NCBI GenBank assembly: GCA_024275995.1
Contig: JAJRYB010000118.1
Coordinates: forward strand, 1-44,756
Direction: 5' to 3'
Length of the DNA: 44,756 bases
DNA from: Planctomycetota bacterium
GTDB lineage: Bacteria > Planctomycetota > Phycisphaerae > SM23-33
This document shows, piece by piece, positions 30,590 through 44,528 of this stretch. The position numbers and the translations under genes were made by a program. The notes under the pieces were generated by a model that had not been told where the DNA came from, made no database searches, and was given only the letters and a program-made list of their open reading frames with translations. Numbering within the stretch: the stretch's first letter is position 1; every line of letters starts with the position of its first letter.

Positions 30590-30685
30590 GCATCGAGCTG
30601 AACTCCGTTGACATATTCGCGGTAAACTGTATAGTACCAAACCCCGTTGGGGCGGGCCTGAAAGCCTCTCCCGCGGGAATATTCC

Positions 30686-30759
<74 letters not shown>

Positions 30760-30779
30760 TTTTAGACAACTCACGTCAG

Positions 30780-30879: not shown

Positions 30880-31229
30880 ATGCCGAAAAGACCGCCTTCC
30901 TACCGCCAGCCCAAAGGGTATGATCAGGCCATTGTCACCCTTACGGATACCCGTACCGGAAAAAGACGCGACTACTGGCTTGGCCCTCACTCCAGCGCGG
31001 AGAGTCGTGAGCGGTACCACCGTCTATTGGCTGAATGGGAAGCCAACGGACGCGTCCTGCCGGAGCCTTCGGATGAAGGGTCCAGCAGCCGGAGCCGGAC
31101 AACGGCCTCCGAAATTATTTACGCCTACTGGGTGTGGGCACAGACATATTTCAATTCCGCATCGGAGATCGGCAACATCCGGATTGCAGCGCGACTGATG
31201 CGACAATTCTACGGTCAGACACCTGCCGC
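30880..31229 (+). pseudogene. Tyrosine-recombinase (integrase) N-terminal fragment
   Basis: The reading frame (126 codons to its stop at 31260) begins MPKRPPSYRQPKGYDQAIVT. It contains YWLGPHSSAESRERYHRLLA and ARLMRQFYGQTPAASF, the core-binding N-terminal region of planctomycete phage-type integrases. The catalytic domain with its R-H-R-Y residues is missing: at about 31230 the sequence passes into a DUF1016 gene. The position beside tRNA-Asp supports an integrated element. AGGGAG lies about nine bases before the ATG. It cannot be active as an integrase. Confidence 0.75.
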
Positions 31230-31538
31230 AAGCTTCGTCGACTGGTGGCCATTGACCTGAAACTCGGACGTTTCCAGGCCGCATACAAGGGTCAGATGGA
31301 ACTTTACCTTCGCTGGCTGGATAAAAACGAGCGCCAGCCGCTGGAAGAACCGCCCATCGGCCTGATTCTCTGCGCCGGGAAGTCCAGTGAGCACGTCGAG
31401 CTTCTCCGGCTGGACCGCAGTGGTATCCGCGTCGCCGCATACATGACCGAACTGCCGCCACGCGACCTTCTGGAGCAGAAACTTCATCAGGCGATTCGAA
31501 CTGCCCGCGCCCGCCTGGAAGCCGGCGGCGATGAATAG
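31230..31538 (+). pseudogene. DUF1016/YhcG-type PDDEXK nuclease, C-terminal fragment
   Basis: About 102 residues from KLRRLVAIDLKLGRFQAAYK to ARARLEAGGDE match the C-terminal nuclease end of DUF1016 (YhcG) proteins, with DxK in AIDLKLG. Further family stretches are PIGLILCAGKSSEHVELL and AYMTELPPRDLLEQKL. The N-terminal two thirds are absent and the frame is joined to an integrase fragment. Family members are often found in mobile elements and restriction loci. Expression is doubtful. Confidence 0.75.
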
Positions 31539-31779: not shown

Positions 31780-33009
31780 TCACGTCGGGTATTCATCTTC
31801 ATGCTTCCAGTGTTGTTGCATGTTCTTAAAGAACCCGCGTTTGCTTTGCCACTGTTGAGCTAGGGCCACTTGTTCGGCAGTTAAATCGGGGATCGTCAGG
31901 CCGACCAAGTCTAGAGAAAAACCCTGCCCTGGTTTAGGCGTTTCCGTGGCGATACCGATGACCTTTGCTTTTCCCGGATAAAGCCATCGGGCAACAAGAC
32001 AGCGAGCTTTTAATTCATCAATGCGATCTTCACGTGGCGATTCGACGGGGCACCCAAGGAATACATATGTGGCCTGACCGAGGCCCGAACAAATTCGGGC
32101 ACGCGCTTGTCCCTGCTGGTTGGCCTCTAGGAAGCTCTGGAAACTTTTGCCCAGTCCTCGCCTAGTGAAGCGATCTTCACGGGCCATTGTGCGTAGGGCT
32201 TGCTCCACTGCATCGACATCTTGCTCACCCAGGAGAACGCCTTTGTGGTGATCTTGGCAGAACATCTCGATCAGCTGGTCCCAGACATAACTAATCTCGT
32301 CGGCCTTCTTCCTAGCTTGGAACTGTTCCTGTTTCGAGAACTCATGCCATATATCTTCGCCCAAGCAGATTAAGTCCTGGTCAGGAAACCTCCGCCCATT
32401 CTGAAGATATAGTGCAAGGAGGTCTTCTTCGCCACCTTCCATCACCACTTGTGATTGTAGATCCTCCTTGGCAGACAAGTATGTTACGAAATCGGTAATC
32501 GTGTCCAGTTCTTGGATGATTGTGCCGAATGATGGACCATCCAGAACGTGGACATACTTGCTGGTGCCCTTATCATCGTATGGACGGGAAGAAAAAAAGA
32601 CCTTATTCTCGCCGCCAAGAGCCACTGCAACGCGGTGTAGATTGCGTACTTCACTTGCAGGAAAAGCCAAACCCACTTTGCCGGACTTGATAATGACGCG
32701 ATCCTTCAGTCCATCCAGATCAAGCCACCTCTCAGCCTTGAAAATCTGTTTAACCGATTCCTCCACAGCCCGTCGCCGCCAGCGGTCCAAGTCCACGGTT
32801 GGGTTGCCGGTATCCTTGAAAGCGATGTGCTTGACCGACATGACGATAACATCGGGGTCGCACACTACCAGCAGATCGCAGAGTTCCTTACCGTTCTTGC
32901 CTTGCGGGTTCGGATATGTCCAGAGAGAAAGAAATGACCGCTGGCAATGCTGGGCTACAAATTGCTCGGCGTCATTCAGACCCAGATTGTCCGTAGCGGA
33001 TGCTGTCAT
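31780..33009 (-). CDS. Orphan PDDEXK-like protein, function unknown
   Basis: 409 residues from the ATG at 33009; a TTG three codons upstream is possible. Residues 14-60 read like a nuclease core: FVAQHCQRSFLSLWTYPNP, then GKELCDLLVVCDPDVIVMSV with E42, D45 and K60 in an order that fits (D/E)-D-(x)n-(E/x)xK. A helical middle (about 180-300) and a C-terminal domain ending FFKNMQQHWKHEDEYPT follow. I recall such FLSLW..PNP genes as scattered orphans in bacteria, which would suit a defence role. That is inference. It lies inside the decayed element, facing the tRNA. Confidence 0.6.
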   Translation of the reverse strand: MTASATDNLGLNDAEQFVAQHCQRSFLSLWTYPNPQGKNGKELCDLLVVCDPDVIVMSVKHIAFKDTGNPTVDLDRWRRRAVEESVKQIFKAERWLDLDGLKDRVIIKSGKVGLAFPASEVRNLHRVAVALGGENKVFFSSRPYDDKGTSKYVHVLDGPSFGTIIQELDTITDFVTYLSAKEDLQSQVVMEGGEEDLLALYLQNGRRFPDQDLICLGEDIWHEFSKQEQFQARKKADEISYVWDQLIEMFCQDHHKGVLLGEQDVDAVEQALRTMAREDRFTRRGLGKSFQSFLEANQQGQARARICSGLGQATYVFLGCPVESPREDRIDELKARCLVARWLYPGKAKVIGIATETPKPGQGFSLDLVGLTIPDLTAEQVALAQQWQSKRGFFKNMQQHWKHEDEYPT

Positions 33010-33092
33010 GGCTACCAAATCTAACCAGACTATATCCGGTGGGCAATGATCAAGATTTGGCCACTGAATTGGACGGTGGCAACTGGTTCGCC

Positions 33093-33142: not shown

Positions 33143-33195
33143 AAGTGCTTCTGCGCAGCAGATTCCACCTGCCGCCCTTCGATATGTTCGCATGC

Positions 33196-33579
33196 ATGAG
33201 CGACGCGGCGAACGAAACAGACGCGGTGGAATCGATCGGGCCGGCTGGCGGTCTGGTGGCCAAGGGCGAGGACCTCATCACGCTCACCGAGGCGGCCCGG
33301 CGACTGCCGAAGATCGACGGCAGGAAAATCTGCGCGGGGACAATATGGCGGTGGTGCAGGTTCGGCCTGCGGGGCGTGTGGCTGGAGCACGTGCGTCTCG
33401 GCAGGAAGATCTGCACCAGCCAGGAGGCCCTGACGCGTTTCTTCGCAGCCCTTGCCGACCTCGATGACTTTTATCCACTGCCAACTCCTGCCCGTCTGAA
33501 GCGACGTGCCATCACATCCCGGCAACGGCTGCGCGCCCTGCGTGAAGCGGACGCCATTCTCGAGGAGGCGGGCATATGA
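33196..33579 (+). CDS. DUF1580-like helix-turn-helix protein
   Basis: 127 residues from the ATG at 33196; starts at 33184 or 33145 are also possible and no ribosome site decides. The core LTEAARRLPKIDGRKICAGT, IWRWCRFGLRGVWLE and GRKICTSQEALTRFFAAL is the DUF1580 pattern found in planctomycete phages and elements. It resembles a MerR/excisionase-like winged DNA-binding fold. It may bind the upstream iterons. GAGGAG near its end serves the next frame, whose ATG at 33576 overlaps its stop. Confidence 0.7.
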   Translation: MSDAANETDAVESIGPAGGLVAKGEDLITLTEAARRLPKIDGRKICAGTIWRWCRFGLRGVWLEHVRLGRKICTSQEALTRFFAALADLDDFYPLPTPARLKRRAITSRQRLRALREADAILEEAGI

Positions 33580-34108
33580 AACCCCGCGACTACGCCAGAT
33601 ACGGCCGACCAGGTCGCCACTCCGAGCGCGAAACTGGGCATCCCCGGTGCGGCGCTGGCTGTGGACGGCATTGAATTCGACCCGTTTGGCAATCCGGTCG
33701 CCTACCACATTCTCAAGTCGCACCCTGGCAGCGGCGCTGCTACGGCTGCGATGCAATACGACCGCGTTTCGGCAGACAGTGTGATCCACTGGTTCCGCGC
33801 GGACAGGCCCGGCCAGCGCCGCGGCCTGCCTGACATCCTGCCAGCCCTGCCCCTGTTCGGGCATCTCCGCCGCTACACGCTGGCTGTGATCCTTGCGAGT
33901 CGGCGGCGAACGTTGCGGTGCTGATGAAGACCAACGCCCCAGCCGGCGGCGAGGCGGCCGAGGTTGAGCCAATGACGGAGATGGAGTTTTCTCCGAACAT
34001 GGCCGTCTTCACGCCGGAGGGCTGGGAGCCGAGCCAGATCAAGGCCGAGCAGCCCGCGACCACCTACGACATGTTCAAGCGGGAGATCCTCAACGAGATC
34101 GCCCGCTG
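33580..34108 (+). pseudogene. Lambda-type phage portal protein, broken fragment
   Basis: Frame 1 reads ADQVATPSAKLGIPGAALA, VDGIEFDPFGNPVAYHILKS and WFRADRPGQRRGLPDILPAL, matching lambda-family portal proteins, and then stops at about 33922. After a one-base shift near 33898 it continues as SAANVAVLMKTNAPAGGEA and then PSQIKAEQPATTYDMFKREI, up to EIARC at 34108. There the family sequence ends abruptly. The start and most N- and C-terminal parts are missing. Portal proteins form the dodecameric DNA channel of the capsid. Confidence 0.75.
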
Positions 34109-34327
34109 CTGGCCGCCCAGCAGGCGATCTACGAGGAACTCGTGGATTTTTTCCGCCAGCGGGGGCGAACGGACCGCGCCCGCGCCGTGGAGACCCAGGC
34201 AACGCTGATAGACAAGGCGGTCAAGGCAATCGAGACGCGGATCGCCGGGATAGACGTCGACGAGACGATCCGTGGCGCGATGTCTGGCTCATCGCCGGAG
34301 CCGTCGGAGTCGATCCCCGACCGCTGA
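34109..34327 (+). pseudogene. Phage structural-region gene, N-terminally truncated
   Basis: The frame LAAQQAIYEELVDFFRQRG, then DRARAVETQATLIDKAVKAI and ending GSSPEPSESIPDR, starts directly at the portal break without a start codon. A GTG at 34142 is the first option. It is helical, of a type that I recall from planctomycete prophages next to tail-assembly genes. The function is unknown. Confidence 0.45.
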
Positions 34328-34588: not shown

Positions 34589-35419
34589 TTACCCAAGCTT
34601 GGTCTGTGTGATTTGCTGCAGTATGAGCAGCGTCTGGTGAATCACATCCAACACGTCCGCCATCGCCACAGGCTTGCCGTGGACGGCTTCGTCGCCCAGC
34701 TTCTTGATCTTCATTGCGTACCCCTTCCCGTCTGCGTCAAGCAAATGGGAAGTCGTTGCTTTCTTGATTCGCCCTTCCAGCCCCCATTTCTCGAAGCCAG
34801 CGTCTTCAAGGGCGACGTCAATGGCACTTCGGCAGAACACGATGCAAGGAACGTCAAGCCCCAATACGAAGCATTCAGCGACTTGCCTGAGAAAAGCGCG
34901 GGCTCGTTTGGTCGGATTGAGCGGAACATGCAGATCGGAAAGCAGAAGAAGGCGAGTAGCGGCTTTCTGCGAGCGGGTGACGGCATCCCGCATGGATTGC
35001 ACAAGCAGAAGTTCCCAAACGATCTTGAGGATCGTCCCGTCCTCGGGCCGGGTATCACTTGCTATATCTCTCAGCGCAGTCAGGAAGACGTCCGGAGACA
35101 GGCCCTTTTGCTCCAGGATGGATGTCAACCGCACGAGGTGGGTTTCGAACTGGCGTATGAATCCCCTCAACTCGGGCTCGACCAAAGTGCACTCGGTTGG
35201 GTTGGGAAGAACGAGCTCCTCTGTTGCCTTCAGAACATGGGAGGCGAACCGTTCCGCCTGCTCGAAGATCGCGGTGGAGAGCGCAGCATCAGTTGGTCCG
35301 CCATTGACATACCATGCCTTCATGTCCTCCTCGTACTCGTTGATGCACGTCTCCAACTGGACATCAAGGTCGAAGTCGTAGTGCCCCTTGCCCGGCGCGG
35401 TCCCATCGTCAGTGCTCAT
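34589..35419 (-). CDS. DUF4145-like protein, possible defence cargo
   Basis: 276 residues from an ATG with GGAGG seven bases upstream; the same frame is open further upstream without a good start. The C-terminal half (QVAECFVLGLDVPCIVFCRS, AIDVALEDAGFEKWGLEGRI, KIKKLGDEAVHGKPVAMADV) fits the helical DUF4145 pattern, which often accompanies restriction or other defence genes. The N-terminal half is helical without a known motif. It lies on the minus strand between plus-strand phage genes, so it looks like an inserted accessory gene. Function unproven. Confidence 0.6.
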   Translation of the reverse strand: MSTDDGTAPGKGHYDFDLDVQLETCINEYEEDMKAWYVNGGPTDAALSTAIFEQAERFASHVLKATEELVLPNPTECTLVEPELRGFIRQFETHLVRLTSILEQKGLSPDVFLTALRDIASDTRPEDGTILKIVWELLLVQSMRDAVTRSQKAATRLLLLSDLHVPLNPTKRARAFLRQVAECFVLGLDVPCIVFCRSAIDVALEDAGFEKWGLEGRIKKATTSHLLDADGKGYAMKIKKLGDEAVHGKPVAMADVLDVIHQTLLILQQITQTKLG

Positions 35420-35918: not shown

Positions 35919-36054
35919 GCCTGTGCAGCTCGCCGAGTCGGTCAAGGCCCATGTGTATATCGAGGTCGCCGGCAAGCGCATCCGCAGCAAGAACCGCGTA
36001 ACGCTCCCGGAAGGCTGGTGGTGTTTACCTGATGATGAGGACGGCGATCAGTGA
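35815..36054 (+). CDS. Small phage-encoded lipoprotein
   Basis: 79 residues with a lipoprotein signal (ILPWLLTATLLAVSVWPGGC, residues 4-23) and a lipobox-like GGC. The mature part (PGEPVQLAESVKAHVYIEV, then VTLPEGWWCLPDDED) resembles small lipoproteins found after holin genes in planctomycete prophages. It overlaps the preceding gene by 104 bases in another frame, a pattern like Rz/Rz1 spanins. GAGAG lies before the ATG. Confidence 0.55.
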   Translation: MNRILPWLLTATLLAVSVWPGGCVRTRTVLIPPGEPVQLAESVKAHVYIEVAGKRIRSKNRVTLPEGWWCLPDDEDGDQ

Positions 36055-36248
36055 TCCTTGGGCGAATCGGCGAATCCCAGTTTTCGCCGCAGGATTTGCA
36101 GGCTGGGGTTCCGCCGGTTCGTTTCCTGCAGAAAGTGCCAGTAGGAGTCGTAACGGTCGCGAACGGACTCGTACTCGGCCAGCAGGCGCTGTTGAATGTC
36201 GCGCTTCATGGCAATGCAGTCAAACGTCTTCTTGGTCCGAGTACTCAT
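36048..36248 (-). CDS. 66-residue partner of the PIN-domain protein
   Basis: Short, charged, helical protein (MSTRTKKTFDCIAMKRDIQQ, RLLAEYESVRDRYDSYWHFL). AAGGAG lies seven bases before the ATG. Its start lies 29 bases inside the end of the PIN gene, so the two are translationally coupled. It could be the antitoxin of a reversed-order toxin-antitoxin pair. No DNA-binding motif is clear. Confidence 0.6.
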   Translation of the reverse strand: MSTRTKKTFDCIAMKRDIQQRLLAEYESVRDRYDSYWHFLQETNRRNPSLQILRRKLGFADSPKDH

Positions 36249-36723
36249 CCTGAATCTCCTTCGGGCAACGGATGTCCAGCAGGCCGTAGCCCTGGGCGAG
36301 GTTCACGCTGTTGAACGCCCTTATTTTATCAAAATTCACGATATGCCGAAAGTTCCAACTCAACAAAATATCGGCCTTGGTGATGGTGGCCAGTGCGATC
36401 CGGGCAGCGTCATCGCGCCACTTGTGCGAAACCACGCCGGCTTGCAGATACGCCTCCGTCAGTGCAACTGCTTCCGGGGTGATGGCAACGGCTTCCAACT
36501 GCTCGTGCGGCAGCGACGACAGAACGTCCTGAATATGGTCGGGAGCGTTGAGAATCTCGCGAAGAAGAATTTCGGAGACCAGCACGATGAACCGGCCGGA
36601 CTTGACCTGCTCGAAAAAACGCTTCGAGTCGTCCGCGAATTCGTCGTCGAAGACACCCCCAAACACGGAGTTGTCCACGAATGCACGAAATCGATGTCGA
36701 TACGGGCCAGGTTGATCGGCCAT
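36220..36723 (-). CDS. PIN-domain (VapC-like) protein
   Basis: 167 residues. The acidic residue D17 in FRAFVDNSVFGGVFD, EILLREIL, and DDAARIALATITKADILLSW followed by NFRHIVN give the PIN nuclease pattern of three to four acidic residues. Members cut RNA and often act as toxins. GGAG lies seven bases before the ATG at 36723. Its 3' end overlaps the start of the small downstream gene. Both lie on the minus strand inside the phage-like region, typical of element stability modules. Confidence 0.75.
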   Translation of the reverse strand: MADQPGPYRHRFRAFVDNSVFGGVFDDEFADDSKRFFEQVKSGRFIVLVSEILLREILNAPDHIQDVLSSLPHEQLEAVAITPEAVALTEAYLQAGVVSHKWRDDAARIALATITKADILLSWNFRHIVNFDKIRAFNSVNLAQGYGLLDIRCPKEIQDEYSDQEDV

Positions 36724-37216: not shown

Positions 37217-38473
37217 ATGAGCATCAAGAAGGTCAATGCGAACTCGAAGGTGGTCCTGTCCGGCAGGACGTTCAATACGATCTCCGACGTCGTGAACTCC
37301 GTTCGGATGGGCACCGCAGGCCGTCCCGCCTCGGCGTCCAAGACGACCGGCGAGATCGTATGGGTCAGAAACGATCACTGGTATGATGTTTATCCGCAAG
37401 ACCATGACCGCTTCGACATACTTGGAATCGACGAGCCTTTGTTTTCGCCGACCGACGCGCCCGACACGTTCAAAAACATCAAAGCCTTCAAGGCCGTTGT
37501 GCCGGATTTTAACGATCCGAGCCGGATCGTCATTCTTCAGCAGCCTATTGCTTATGGTGATGTCGGTCGTGCCGTGCTGACCGGCATAACGCCCGTGAAG
37601 ATCAACGTTACGGACGAAGATCATGAGTACGCCACACTGGAATGGAACAGCGGCGCATATCCGGGCATGACCTACACCGATCATCTAATCAGTGCGAACG
37701 AAGGCCCTGCGTACATCCTCTGGAAAGAGACCGGCACAGGTACGAAATGGGCCATCGTCCGGCTGATCCACTATCACCTGAACTACCGGATCAAGTACGG
37801 CGTCGTGAAAAAGGTCGTTCGAGCAAGTACTCCCGTTCCGCCGCCGGGCGGACCGCCCAATCCCGTGATCTACCTGAACGTCTATCCGTGCGACGACGAA
37901 TACGGCACGAACAAGGACACATCCAGAACCCTGACAGTGAAAGTGCCGGGGGCGGTACGGTTGGCCGACGGCACATTCGCGACTCCACCGGCGCGATCGG
38001 TGAACGTCTGGACGGAGGACGGTGACGGAACCGACAAGGGCCAGGTGATCGCGTATCTCGATACGCCCGGCGATGAGGGGCCGGAGCGAACCTGTCTGTC
38101 CGACGTTTGGGACGCTCCGCGTGGGACGATCCGGATGTGGAACGACGCGAGCAATATCCCGCACGGGTGGCACATCTGCGACGGTACGAACGGCACGCCG
38201 GACCTGCGGAACCGGTTCGTCGTGGCCACCGGCAGCAGTTACTCCGCCGGCGATACGGGCGGCTACAAGTACCACGGCGGCAGCCAGAACAACCACGACG
38301 CTCACGACCTGGAGCACGACCATAATCTCAATTTCACGGGCATGGTCGCCGGCGGGTCCGATTACAACGTCTATTCGTCTTCGACGCAGAACGCTCTCTC
38401 TACGGCGGCAACGCACAGCCAGACTGACAACCGCCCGCCATACTACGCGCTGACGTATATTATGAAGCTGTGA
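37217..38473 (+). CDS. Phage tail-collar domain protein
   Basis: 418 residues. The C-terminal third has the tail-collar signature: PRGTIRMWNDASNIPHGWHI, CDGTNGTPDLRNRFVVATGS, GGYKYHGGSQNNHDAH and a final RPPYYALTYIMKL. The N-terminal two thirds are beta-rich and unassigned. It is likely a tail fibre or receptor-binding tip protein. The gene looks intact although its neighbours are broken. It is the last phage-like gene of the region. Confidence 0.8.
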   Translation: MSIKKVNANSKVVLSGRTFNTISDVVNSVRMGTAGRPASASKTTGEIVWVRNDHWYDVYPQDHDRFDILGIDEPLFSPTDAPDTFKNIKAFKAVVPDFNDPSRIVILQQPIAYGDVGRAVLTGITPVKINVTDEDHEYATLEWNSGAYPGMTYTDHLISANEGPAYILWKETGTGTKWAIVRLIHYHLNYRIKYGVVKKVVRASTPVPPPGGPPNPVIYLNVYPCDDEYGTNKDTSRTLTVKVPGAVRLADGTFATPPARSVNVWTEDGDGTDKGQVIAYLDTPGDEGPERTCLSDVWDAPRGTIRMWNDASNIPHGWHICDGTNGTPDLRNRFVVATGSSYSAGDTGGYKYHGGSQNNHDAHDLEHDHNLNFTGMVAGGSDYNVYSSSTQNALSTAATHSQTDNRPPYYALTYIMKL

Positions 38474-40320: not shown

Positions 40321-41349
40321 ATGGGTAAAACAAAGAAAGCGTTGATTACCGGTATTACCGGCCAGGACGGAAGCTACCTTGCCGAACTGCTGCTGGACAA
40401 GGGCTACGAGGTGCACGGGCTGGTGCGTCGCAGCAGCACGTTCGGAACGGAGCGGATCGAACATTTGTACCAGGACCCGCATAAGAAGGGCGCCCGTTTA
40501 TTCCTGCACTACGGCGACCTGACCGACGGCGCGGGCCTGCGGCAGGTGCTGACCGCCTGCAAGCCTGACGAAGTCTATAACCTCGCAGCACAATCGCACG
40601 TGCGAGTCAGCTTTGACCAGCCGGTCTACAGCGCACAGGTCGACGCCGTGGGAACGTTGAGGCTCCTGGAGGCGATGCGGGATCTCGATCTGAAAATGAA
40701 GTTTTACCAGGCATCCAGCAGCGAGATGTTCGGAAAGGTTCTCGAGACGCCGCAGACCGAAACCACCCCGTTCTACCCCCGCAGCCCGTACGGCTGCGCG
40801 AAGGTGTTTTCCTACTGGCAGACGGTGAACCATCGCGAGGCGTATGGCATGTTCGCCTGCAACGGGATCCTGTTCAACCATGAAAGCCCACGCCGTGGCG
40901 AGACGTTCGTAACGCGAAAGATCACACGCGCAGCCACGCGTATCAAGGAAGGACTCCAGGACAAGTTGTTCCTGGGCAACCTGGACTCGAAACGCGACTG
41001 GGGTTTCGCGGGCGATTACGTCGAGGCGATGTGGCTGATGCTCCAGCAGGATGAGCCGGATGACTACGTCGTCGCTACCGGCGAGACCCATTCCGTACGG
41101 GAGTTCCTGGACGAGGTATTCGGCCGGCTCGATATGGACTGGAACAAGTACGTGGAGATCGATCCTCGATACTTCCGACCGACGGAGGTGGACCTGCTGC
41201 TTGGCGATGCGAGCAAGGCGCGCGAAAAACTGGGCTGGCAGCCCAAGGTCGATCTCAAGGAACTGGCGGGAATGATGGTCGAACACGACTGGACACTCGC
41301 CAGGGAAGAACGCGTCCTTGAGGACCATCGGGCGAAAAACGGCTCGTAG
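40321..41349 (+). CDS. gmd: GDP-mannose 4,6-dehydratase
   Basis: 342 residues, normal length. It converts GDP-D-mannose to GDP-4-keto-6-deoxymannose. NAD(P) binding is at GITGQDG (11-17), with family stretches [30 protein letters not shown] and Y157xxxK161 in [32 protein letters not shown] is diagnostic. GAGGT lies six bases before the ATG. The next gene begins ten bases downstream. Confidence 0.97.
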
Positions 41350-41359
41350 AAAGATTACT

Positions 41360-42304
41360 ATGGATCTGTCGAAAGAAAGAATCTGTATCACGGGTGGGGA
41401 TGGTTTTCTGGGCAGACACCTGCAGGCTGAGCTGAAAACAAATGCCAGCGTGCCTGACGAGAATATCCTTATTCCCCTGATCGACGATTATGACCTGGCG
41501 AAAGAGGCCGACGTCATTCGTATGTACGACGCGCTGGAGCCGACGGTCGTCATTCACCTTGCCGCCGAGGTCGGCGGGATAGGCGCAAACCGCGAGAATC
41601 CCGGGCGGTTCTTCTACGCGAACATGGCCATGGGTTTGCACCTGATCGAACACGCCCGCCTGGTGGGGCTGAAGAAATTCGTCCAGGTCGGCACGATTTG
41701 CGCGTACCCGAAGTTCACGCCGGTTCCGTTCAAGGAAGAGAACCTCTGGGAAGGCTACCCGGAGGAGACCAACGCCCCGTACGGTATCGCCAAAAAGGCG
41801 CTGCTTGTGATGCTCCAGGCGTACCGTCAGCAGTATGGGCTGAACGGTATTTATCTCCTGCCGGTGAACCTGTATGGGCCGGGCGACAACTTCGACCTTC
41901 GCACCAGCCATGTTATCCCCGCGCTGATTCGCAAGTTCGTCGAGGCGAAACAGCGGGGCGACAAGACCGTCGAGGTCTGGGGCACCGGAAAAGCCAGTCG
42001 GGAGTTTTTCTATGTGGAAGACGCCGCACGCGGGTTGCGTCTGGCGACGGAAAAATACGACGGGCCTGAACCGGTGAATCTCGGGGCCGGTTTCGAGATA
42101 ACGATCCGCGACCTCGTTGAGAAGATCCGCGAGATAGTCGACTTTGACGGCGAGCTTATCTGGGATGCGAGTAAGCCGGACGGTCAGCCGCGACGCTGCC
42201 TGGACGTCACGCGGGCCGAGGAGTATTTCGATTTCCGTGCCGAGATGTCGTTCGATAAAGGCCTGCGACGGACAATTGAATGGTATCTGCGGGAAGCCTG
42301 CTGA
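41360..42304 (+). CDS. GDP-L-fucose synthase-like epimerase/reductase
   Basis: 314 residues. Rossmann motif TGGDGFLG (11-18), GTICAYPK (111-118) and the catalytic Y141xxxK145 in APYGIAKKA are present. [20 protein letters not shown] is typical of fcl/WcaG enzymes, which turn GDP-4-keto-6-deoxymannose to GDP-L-fucose. Next to gmd this is the natural reading, although related enzymes make other GDP-6-deoxysugars. The position usually held by Ser in this family reads Thr here (T112). Confidence 0.88.
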
Positions 42305-42588
42305 TACGGTAATACCATCGTCAATTAATTAGTGCGCTCGCGCACAGCAGTCGCCGTGGACGGATCGGTCGGCGGCGTAGTACACCAGTACACCTGAGAA
42401 GCAGGCTGCAAAGTGCTTGGCCTGGACGATCAGGAATTGTCCTGCGACCCATCCGTGGGTATATGGCAATTTAAGAAAGACATGGCGTATCGGCGGAGTT
42501 GTCGGCCCATGCTTGCAGGGATCGGGCTGTCCCGCCAATCCGTCAGCTCTATCATAAAACGCAATAACCATCGTAGGAGTCGGATGTT
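42305..42588. other. Gap in the polysaccharide locus without a convincing gene
   Basis: A minus-strand open frame of 80 codons (42329-42571) reads PTTPPIRHVFLKLPYTHGWV but matches nothing that I recognise. TAGGAG for the next gene lies at its right end. The stretch may be debris of a lost gene. Confidence 0.25.
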
Positions 42589-43095
42589 ATGACAAGAGAT
42601 TATCTGACGGTAGTTTCAGGACTCCCCAGAAGTGGAACCTCGATGATGATGAAGATACTCGAGGCCGGTGGTGTCGAACCGATCACTGACAATCTACGTA
42701 AGGCCGATCGGGATAACCCCAAGGGGTACTACGAGTTCGAGCCTGCCAAGAATACCAGGAATGACGCTTCGTGGCTGGTCGGTTCGGCGGGAAAGTCGGT
42801 CAAGATGGTCTACCGGTTGTTATATGATCTGCCTGTCGAAGGACATACCTATAAAGTCATTTTCATGCGACGCGAATTGGACGAGGTGTTGCGTTCCCAG
42901 GGAAAGATGCTCAAACGTCTTGGTCGCGACATGGGGCAGGCGGATCAAGAGGCAATGGGGGATCTGTTTCGGCGCGACCTGGAAGTTTTTGCCCAGTGGG
43001 CACAGCGTCAGGATGCCTTTGAATTCCTGGATGTAAAATATGGAGACAGGCATTGGAATGTGCCATCTCGGCAGAAGAGAGAAGATTGTTTTTGA
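42589..43095 (+). CDS. Sulfotransferase-family protein, probably C-terminally truncated
   Basis: 168 residues. The PAPS-binding loop SGLPRSGTSMMMKIL is at 9-23, and VIFMRRELDEVLRSQGKML gives the second nucleotide-binding element. The family usually runs beyond 200 residues; after FEFLDVKYGDRHWNVPSRQ the sequence no longer fits and stops, suggesting a frameshift or deletion near 43040. It would transfer sulfate to a surface glycan if active. TAGGAG lies nine bases before the ATG. Confidence 0.7.
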   Translation: MTRDYLTVVSGLPRSGTSMMMKILEAGGVEPITDNLRKADRDNPKGYYEFEPAKNTRNDASWLVGSAGKSVKMVYRLLYDLPVEGHTYKVIFMRRELDEVLRSQGKMLKRLGRDMGQADQEAMGDLFRRDLEVFAQWAQRQDAFEFLDVKYGDRHWNVPSRQKREDCF

Positions 43096-43184
43096 ATCAT
43101 CGTTTGGAAGGCGAGTGATAAAATGCTTTCATTTCCGAGGCAACAGAAGTTTCATGCTTAGAAACCCGAGGATTTCTTCAATCT

Positions 43185-44528
43185 ATGCGAACAGGTATGC
43201 AAAATGTGACAATCGTATTCGGTTCGCACATTGGAATGCTGTTGATCGGCATTCTAACGCAGAGCTTTCTGGCTCGTCTGCTGGGTCCGGAGGATCGCGG
43301 GGCTTATGCCGTTGCGTTTCTTTTTGCGACGCTCATGGCATTGATATTTGCGGTTGGATTGGACACGGCCGGGCGATACTTCGTCGCTTCGAAAAAGTTG
43401 ACCTGTTCACAGGGTGTTGTGAACACGTTCGTCAACGCCACGATCGGTTCGGTGCTGGGTATTCTTGTCGGCCTGGTCGTTATGCATCTTCCGTTGACCT
43501 TTTTCGCCAAGGCGCCACGATCGGCATTCGCTCTGGCGATAGTCCTGATTCCGGTGATGATGCTTCGCCTGGCCCTGTCCGGGATTTTGACCGCGGTGCA
43601 GGAGTTCACATTGTCTGCGGTCCTGAATATTGCCGGTGCACTGCTGACGTTGGTGTTGACGCTGCTGTTCGTGGGGGTTTTTCAGTGGGGCGTGCACGGA
43701 GCAGTTCTGGTGGTGGCGTCGACCTGGACGCTCGTTATTCTCGCTTCCCTTAAGATTTTTCGTTCACGATATGATCTGAAATGGCACGCCCCGGCCCTGC
43801 ATGACCTACTCGCAATGGCACGTTTTGGTCTGCGTTATTACGTTGGAAAACTGTTCAATCAGGTCAATTTTCAGATCGGTACGATTATCCTGGCCTTCTT
43901 CGCCGACCAGAAGCAGATAGCCTTCTTCAGTGTTGCAGCGGTTCTCGCAACCCGTGTGATGCTGATCCCCGACTCGGTGACCGCAGTTCTGCTTCCGAAG
44001 GTGGCCGCGGACCAGGAGGGACGGGGGGAACTGGTGGCCCTGATGTCGCGCGTTTGTGCCGTGGTGTGCGGGATCGCGCTGTTGGTGCTGGCTGTCGCGG
44101 CGCATCCGATCGTGATGCTCCTGTATGGTTCCGCATATGAAGCAGCGGCGGTGCTGATCCAGATCATCTCGATCGGCGTTTTTGTCCGGTGCGCGAGCAA
44201 AGTGTTCGTGCCCTATCTTGTCGGGCGAAACCATCCGGGCATAGCTTCGGTCGCGGTTGCGGCAGGCATGATAACAAATATAGCAACTTTGTGGTTCCTG
44301 CTGCCAAGGATTGGGCTGCCCGGTGCGGCGGTGGCAATGACGGCCAGTTTCTGTGTCAGTTCCGCCTTCCTCGTCTGGAGTTTCGTTCGGATCAGTCGAA
44401 TTCCTCTTCGCAACATCTGGCGTTTCCGCCGACATGATTTCTCGACCTTGCTCGGACGGGGCGGAGTATCGACGTTGAAAAAAACGCCGGAAGAAGTGGA
44501 TCACACCCCCTCCGAGGGCCGATTGTAA
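43185..44528 (+). CDS. Wzx-type polysaccharide flippase
   Basis: 447 residues with about 12-14 membrane helices (for example GMLLIGILTQSFLARLLGPE, LTLVLTLLFVGVFQWGVHGA and LLVLAVAAHPIVMLLYGSAY). The start FGSHIGMLLIGILTQ and the LLGPEDRGAYA signature are those of oligosaccharide flippases of the MOP superfamily. It would move lipid-linked repeat units across the membrane. The start may be 43185 or 43197. It belongs with the gmd and sulfotransferase genes. Confidence 0.9.
   Translation: MRTGMQNVTIVFGSHIGMLLIGILTQSFLARLLGPEDRGAYAVAFLFATLMALIFAVGLDTAGRYFVASKKLTCSQGVVNTFVNATIGSVLGILVGLVVMHLPLTFFAKAPRSAFALAIVLIPVMMLRLALSGILTAVQEFTLSAVLNIAGALLTLVLTLLFVGVFQWGVHGAVLVVASTWTLVILASLKIFRSRYDLKWHAPALHDLLAMARFGLRYYVGKLFNQVNFQIGTIILAFFADQKQIAFFSVAAVLATRVMLIPDSVTAVLLPKVAADQEGRGELVALMSRVCAVVCGIALLVLAVAAHPIVMLLYGSAYEAAAVLIQIISIGVFVRCASKVFVPYLVGRNHPGIASVAVAAGMITNIATLWFLLPRIGLPGAAVAMTASFCVSSAFLVWSFVRISRIPLRNIWRFRRHDFSTLLGRGGVSTLKKTPEEVDHTPSEGRL

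What the first reader, a model, noticed from the sequence alone, without database searches (positions are those of the whole stretch)
31780..33009. Orphan PDDEXK-like gene in the decayed element
It looks intact while its neighbours are broken, which suggests selection. The N-terminal E42/D45/K60 pattern fits a nuclease core with two further undefined domains. It could be a single-gene defence system.
Basis: inference. Interest (0 to 1): 0.5.

Follow-up and report, generated by a model that had tools for sequence, protein, structure and literature searches.

The report
Mobile single-gene nuclease, probably anti-phage
An intact gene stranded in a decayed virus remnant belongs to a widespread, little-noticed family of DNA-cutting-type proteins that travels alone between bacteria, phage satellites and plasmids, so it is probably a one-gene defence against invading DNA that still needs testing.

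Summary
The open frame at 31780-33009 (-) is real: 409 codons, keeping every residue invariant in the family. Its predicted structure (pLDDT 90.8) has a PD-(D/E)XK nuclease core in residues about 11-180. The remaining 224 residues fold confidently but show no clear structural relative. The family corresponds to phrog_18195, function unknown. It is widespread (175 loci in species genomes, 140 plasmids, 24 viral contigs) but patchy (15 of 397 genomes of the window's class, own included). It has no conserved partner. A same-family genome holds a 67% identical copy with no other similarity to the window in 20 kb. Elsewhere it sits in prophages, P4-like satellites, a capsid-gene-bearing satellite-like element and conjugative plasmids. 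Flanking genes match 167 PADLOC families at E<=1e-20, control genes 21. 'Neighbours are broken' is only partly right: two other minus-strand genes are open too. Ten answered literature searches of an open-licence library returned no description.

The parts
31780..33009 (-). The gene: 409-codon ORF from ATG at 33009 (TTG at 33018 also in frame); member of phrog_18195
32470..32979 (-). Residues 11-180: PD-(D/E)XK nuclease core
   Evidence: AlphaFold2 model and VIA-align rows
32830..32886 (-). Residues 42-60: E42, D45, S58, K60 of the putative active site (E15 and Q88 lie outside this stretch)
   Evidence: conservation over 53 rows; catalytic role inferred
31783..32454 (-). Residues 186-409: C-terminal region of unknown relationship with invariant S240, D244, R280, R283, R329
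30685..30760 (+). tRNA-Asp at the edge of the decayed element (context)
   Evidence: no second copy of its 3' end in the window
31209..31535 (+). YhcG_C nuclease fragment, broken neighbour (context)
   Evidence: Pfam PF06250, profile 68-156 of 157
33145..33576 (+). DUF1580 ORF (context)
   Evidence: Pfam PF07618
33661..34208 (+). Lambda-type portal gene in two overlapping pieces (context)
   Evidence: Pfam PF05136 (the second piece is below the curated cut-off)
34592..35419 (-). Open DUF4145-like gene (context)
   Evidence: Pfam PF13643, 22.0 bits against a cut-off of 23.1
36220..36723 (-). Open PIN-like gene (context)
   Evidence: Pfam PF13470, 20.6 bits against a cut-off of 27

Best explanation
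The gene encodes a stand-alone sensor-effector nuclease that defends its carrier (host, prophage, satellite or plasmid) against competing phages or other incoming DNA. Shown by computation: an N-terminal PD-(D/E)XK core, a conserved C-terminal region without a clear fold relative, no conserved partner gene, and occurrence as a lone gene in unrelated mobile elements and defence-rich loci. Inferred: the C-terminal region with its invariant S240/D244/R280/R283/R329 recognises a feature of invading DNA or a phage product, and the nuclease core then cuts DNA. Because no methyltransferase travels with it, self-DNA is probably spared either because only modified or structurally unusual DNA is cut (type IV-like) or because the enzyme is silent until infection (abortive). 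In the window it is cargo of a decayed tRNA-Asp prophage remnant.
For: Nuclease fold. E15, E42 and D45 in 53 of 53 rows, K60 in 49 of 53. No partner: the commonest neighbour family occurs in 9 of 104 loci at scattered positions. The closest copy lies in unrelated surroundings. Patchy: 15 of 397 class genomes. Flanking genes match 167 PADLOC families at E<=1e-20 against 21 for controls from the same genomes, and 18 against 5 models at E<=1e-90. Located at the edge of P4-like satellites beside delta/psu; the psu-int locus is a published anti-phage hotspot (PMC9122126, passages). In a lambda-like prophage between a restriction endonuclease and a HEPN gene. In 7 of 15 chosen plasmid loci defence-type genes are annotated nearby. 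Purifying selection.
Against: No experiment. No known defence model matches the window protein. The PADLOC comparison counts families rather than proteins, and one helicase accounts for most of the control's families. 8 of 15 plasmid loci show no named defence gene, and that count has no control. The acid two before the lysine is Ser; 4 of 53 rows have Arg at K60, so some members may be inactive. No match in 50,697 phage records with the window protein.
Confidence: 0.6

Rival explanations
1. A competition or maintenance nuclease of mobile elements (plasmid or prophage exclusion, incompatibility, or an addiction-like toxin) rather than an anti-phage defence of the host.
For: Carried by plasmids, 89 of 140 of them predicted conjugative, by prophages and satellites. 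The plasmid copies need not face phage.
Against: Many copies lie in chromosomal loci of one-per-species genomes beside restriction, Gabija-type, DRT and similar matches. No antitoxin-like partner is conserved.
Confidence: 0.2
2. The window copy is a passenger on its way to decay: recently active, now neutral, so its intactness says nothing about present function.
For: It sits in a broken phage remnant. A same-family genome, G017, holds only a 64-residue match in a 99-codon frame. Selection shown by pN/pS covers the whole divergence from the sister copy.
Against: All positions invariant over 53 rows are kept and the full frame is open. Two other cargo-type genes on the same strand are open too.
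Confidence: 0.12
3. A housekeeping DNA repair or recombination nuclease.
For: PD-(D/E)XK folds include repair nucleases (recalled). Weak Foldseek rows include RecE, lambda exonuclease and a Cas4-like protein.
Against: Present in 15 of 397 class genomes, no fixed neighbourhood, found on plasmids and in prophages.
Confidence: 0.04

Closest known systems
phrog_18195 (PHROGs v4, function unknown)
   Same: 10 of 10 members scanned match it; the window protein with E 4.3e-32 over two stretches, the best 151-370
   Different: The model describes no function; it is 489 positions long and reaches the C-terminal end of SEC-C-bearing members, while the window protein is shorter
NERD nuclease-related domain (Pfam PF08378)
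   Same: Weak similarity of residues 16-99, E 0.11; 3 of 20 relatives match at E<=1, best 0.0085
   Different: Below the curated cut-off (13.5 against 22.1 bits)
Restriction-type PD-(D/E)XK nucleases: R.BspD6I small subunit, McrC, FokI, HindIII
   Same: Fold of residues about 11-180 (Z 8.8, 7.9, 7.8 and 6.6; rmsd 3.4-4.0 over 123-157 residues)
   Different: No conserved methyltransferase or McrB-type ATPase partner; Ser instead of acid two before the lysine
CRISPR ancillary nuclease Can2 (8q41)
   Same: Recalled: a sensor plus a PD-(D/E)XK effector in one chain; nuclease part matches, Z 7.9, rmsd 3.6 over 130 residues
   Different: Here the nuclease part is N-terminal; the listed rows for the rest show no CARF-type protein, which does not exclude one

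Membership tests
phrog_18195 | Significant match to the family profile | tested here: met
   E 4.3e-32 for the window protein; 10 of 10 members scanned, L033 member E 1.1e-80
PD-(D/E)XK nuclease superfamily | Core fold | tested here: met
   Model pLDDT 90.8; of 18 listed entries with Z>=5, at least 14 are PD-(D/E)XK proteins by recall. Best Z 8.8 is only a little above the level the tool calls usual; Foldseek alone gives none at E<=0.001
PD-(D/E)XK nuclease superfamily | Asp plus (D/E)xK active site | tested here: inconclusive
   D45 53 of 53 and K60 49 of 53, but the position two before the lysine is Ser in 48 of 53. Variants of this acid are known in the superfamily (recalled). Geometry could not be examined
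NERD domain (PF08378) | Pfam gathering score | tested here: not met
   13.5 bits against 22.1
SEC-C / YecA-type proteins (RefSeq label of relatives) | C-terminal SEC-C zinc motif | tested here: not met
   No SEC-C match in the window protein; 4 of 20 relatives have it, 22 of 98 full-length members by pattern
Known or candidate defence proteins of PADLOC-DB 2.0.0 | Match to a model | tested here: not met
   0 families at E<=10 for the window protein. Four of 20 relatives match PDC-S12 and E2-type models, best 9e-07, one matches HEC-02B at 0.052; I read the four as SEC-C matches, which was not checked residue by residue
Restriction-modification system | Cognate methyltransferase travels with the nuclease | tested here: not met
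   No conserved neighbour family over 104 loci
Single-gene anti-phage defence | Occurs without a conserved partner | tested here: met
   Commonest neighbour family in 9 of 104 loci at scattered distances and strands
Single-gene anti-phage defence | Association with defence genes above a control | tested here: met
   167 against 21 PADLOC families at E<=1e-20 for 110 flanking and 110 control proteins; families, not proteins, are counted
Single-gene anti-phage defence | Protects cells from phage | not testable with these tools
   Needs a phage challenge

The most novel reading that the evidence does not exclude
A pan-bacterial, undescribed single-gene immune family in which a variant PD-(D/E)XK site (E-x-x-D ... 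S-x-K) is fused to a new sensor fold with an invariant Ser/Asp/Arg cluster. It is carried as exchangeable cargo by phage satellites, prophages, plasmids and host islands, and acts without a methyltransferase or partner ATPase.
Probability: 0.42. Interest if true: 0.68.

Novelty: new variant of a known kind. Interest (0 to 1): 0.52.

Why it matters
If the reading is right, one ORF in a degraded prophage points to a defence nuclease found under 13 phylum-level labels and already present, labelled only 'YecA family' or 'SEC-C', on E. coli and Klebsiella plasmids and P4-like satellites. Those copies make the idea directly testable in laboratory strains, and the unmatched C-terminal region could be a new way of sensing invaders.

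Tried and rejected
Single-protein scans of genome and viral contigs found no relative. A seven-row alignment succeeded; two narrower alignments found one viral relative, already known, and none. The genome scan demands E-[LVI]-C-D-..., so invariance of C44 in the 53-row set is partly circular. E42 and D45 are also invariant in the 20-row set found without that pattern, where C44 is not. The motif counts carry the same bias.

Sequence searches of solved structures gave nothing useful. Foldseek on the viral library gave none at E<=0.001. C-terminal region alone: best VIA row Z 4.2 (phosphopentomutase, rmsd 4.3, 87 aligned), JAB/MPN-type rows at 3.1-4.0. I do not read these as relationship, and a missing match does not show a new fold. 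Its top Foldseek rows include a Cas4-like protein (E 0.026) and RecE (0.45); an internal duplication of the nuclease fold was considered and left as a weak idea.

PADLOC hits of four relatives were set aside as probable SEC-C matches. No second tRNA-Asp 3' end was found in the window with up to 3 mismatches, so element ends are not defined. Phage records: no match. PHROGs was not run on the phage-remnant ORFs of the window (one search failed).

Limits: neighbouring ORFs were called mechanically (longest non-overlapping frames), so some are spurious in both sets. The neighbour scan used 110 of 137 eligible ORFs and the control 110 of 260; control places were picked by me on long contigs of 20 of the 43 carrier genomes. 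The 15 plasmid loci were picked for diversity, not at random. Of 9 chromosomal E. coli places 5 were opened. Model coordinates could not be opened, so active-site geometry is inferred.

Full report
What is there. Relatives place the conserved N-terminal G/E residues at about the same distance from the start as this ATG does. By base composition a stop-free stretch of 439 codons has a chance of about 2e-7. It lies in a phage remnant next to a tRNA-Asp. The plus-strand genes there are broken: a C-terminal YhcG nuclease fragment at 31209-31535 and a lambda-type portal split into two overlapping pieces at 33661-34208. Two other minus-strand genes, DUF4145-like (34592-35419) and PIN-like (36220-36723), are open as well. 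The contrast is between decayed phage genes and open minus-strand cargo, not between one gene and everything else.

Family. For the window protein Pfam gives only a sub-threshold NERD hit, and PADLOC and NCBIfam nothing. tblastn against plasmids finds 157 records at E<=10 and 140 at E<=1e-5, 105 of them covering at least 80% of the query, every best place under 60% identity, in Klebsiella, Citrobacter, Providencia, Escherichia, Xanthomonas, rhizobia, Hymenobacter, a cyanobacterium and others. A seven-row alignment finds 24 relatives among 56 pattern-matched stretches of viral contigs and 175 among 193 in one-per-species genomes, of which the best 80 were kept. The family matches phrog_18195, function unknown: 10 of 10 members scanned, the window protein with E 4.3e-32. 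RefSeq labels such as 'SEC-C metal-binding' or 'YecA family' reflect, I infer, an optional C-terminal zinc motif present in 22 of 98 full-length members by pattern and absent here.

Distribution. In the window's class 15 of 397 genomes have a match, the window's own included; of 198 relatives, 10, the own genome included. The class is probably Phycisphaerae: the same-class genome G121 yields a protein identical to that of locus L063, titled Phycisphaerales. The closest copy (67% identical, genome G024, same family) shares no other detectable similarity with the window over 19.9 kb around it. Of 43 carrier genomes searched, 42 show one matching place and one shows two adjacent pieces. On a tree of 53 members, 13 phylum labels need 17 changes (least possible 12, shuffled mean 20.4, as low in 0 of 200; 19 rows without label). 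The tool warns that more than one change is no proof of transfer. Against the closest copy pN is 0.21 and pS 0.81, dS saturated.

Structure. A 53-row alignment gave a model with mean pLDDT 90.8 and pTM 0.90. Foldseek alone had no match at E<=0.001. VIA-align over Foldseek's top chains lists 18 entries with Z>=5, starting at residue 1-13 and ending between 141 and 227. By recall at least 14 are PD-(D/E)XK nucleases or pseudonucleases: R.BspD6I small subunit (Z 8.8), McrC (four entries), Can2, FokI, HindIII, R2 (two entries), HerA-DUF, CidB, the Cas4-like SSO0001 and Hachiman; I am less sure of 8z4i, 9wuf, 9a5m and 3fov. The best Z is only slightly above what the tool calls usual, so the consistency of the rows carries the argument. 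E15, E42 and D45 are in 53 of 53 rows, K60 in 49 (Arg in 4), Ser58 in 48. In 98 full-length members of the 104 loci the motif reads S-D-K 70, S-E-K 19, F-D-R 6, S-E-R 1, unread 2. So the acid two before the lysine is replaced by Ser and an acid usually stands directly before the lysine; the window's version is S-V-K. Residues 186-409 fold confidently alone (pLDDT 92.2) but match nothing clearly (best Z 4.2). They hold the invariant S240, D244, R280, R283 and R329.

Neighbourhood. Clustering 1474 flanking ORFs of 104 loci found no partner: the commonest family occurs in 9 loci at scattered distances and on both strands. For enrichment I took 110 of 137 eligible nearest-flank ORFs around the 80 genome loci and 110 of 260 ORFs from twenty 20-kb control regions on contigs of 20 carrier genomes. 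At E<=1e-20 they match 167 and 21 PADLOC families. At E<=1e-90 the flanks match 18 models: type I and IIG restriction, type II methyltransferase, DzbA, TIR-Argonaute, Hhe, DRT, GajB and PDC candidates. Controls of that strength are 5 models (DpdF three, RtcR, PsyrT). Families are counted, not proteins; in the flanks each listed family has one or two members. Pfam on the same flanks also shows ordinary genes, e.g. acyl-CoA dehydrogenase domains in 3 of 110 and ankyrin repeats in 2.

Named examples. Of 15 plasmid loci chosen for diversity, 7 carry what I recognise from annotation as defence genes: type I M and S genes, DUF1837 plus DEAD helicase as in Hachiman, AAA ATPase plus S8 peptidase, a type II nuclease plus cytosine methyltransferase, AbiH, TrlF, and AAA ATPase plus McrC. 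The other eight show none by name; there is no control for this count. On a Klebsiella plasmid the gene lies between a DUF5906 gene and capsid, protease, portal and terminase genes of an integrase/AlpA element, like capsid-forming satellites (the comparison is recalled). In E. coli a copy at least 99% identical to the IncN gene is in 21 of 5,426 genomes, all on plasmids; 9 chromosomal places match a Klebsiella member, of which I opened five. Two lie at the chromosomal edge of P4-like satellites beside delta and psu genes, one beside a partial delta gene and IS66, one is a shortened copy next to IS1 and an integrase, and one lies in a lambda-like prophage after replication genes, between a restriction endonuclease and a HEPN gene. 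In viral contig L033 it lies between RusA and a phage HNH gene (with a 118-residue ORF between), upstream of endolysin and terminase genes. The locus between psu and int is a published reservoir of anti-phage systems (PMC9122126, passages seen); the gene lies between psu/delta and int only on the circular form of the satellite, which is my inference.

Mechanism proposed. A lone sensor-effector nuclease: the C-terminal region recognises an infection cue or a feature of foreign DNA (inferred) and the N-terminal core cuts DNA (fold supported, activity inferred). Lack of a travelling methyltransferase argues against classical restriction-modification and for type IV-like selectivity or conditional activation. 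Confidence 0.6 that it is an anti-phage or anti-invader nuclease.

Literature. Ten searches were answered; searches failed on term format. I saw listings only, plus passages of PMC9122126. None of the listed titles or abstract starts describes this protein; one search looked for three protein accessions, the PHROG name and the SEC-C label and found 0 papers. The library holds openly licensed papers only and supplements could not be opened, so a description elsewhere is possible.

Noticed in passing
34592-35419 (-), 36220-36723 (-) and 36048-36248 (-): Two more open minus-strand cargo genes in the decayed element: DUF4145-like, and a PIN-like gene followed by a 66-residue ORF that could be a toxin-antitoxin pair.
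   Followed up: partly
L048, L049, L052, L053 (viral contigs) and L022 (Xanthomonas plasmid): A sub-branch with F-D-R in place of S-[D/E]-K (6 of 98 members; four A5 rows form one starred clade): possibly inactive or altered nucleases.
   Followed up: partly
30685-30760 (+) and element downstream: tRNA-Asp marks one edge of the phage remnant, but no second copy of its 3' end was found in the window, so the other edge is undefined.
   Followed up: partly
37217-38473 (+) and 40321-44528 (+): By eye: a phage tail-collar-like ORF, then nucleotide-sugar enzymes and a flippase-like ORF that look like a surface-polysaccharide cluster. Pfam at E<=0.01 gave nothing for the first.
   Followed up: no
L016 9207-11354 (-): A 715-residue SEC-C-labelled protein lies directly beside the closest plasmid homologue (Diaphorobacter), on the opposite strand.
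   Followed up: no
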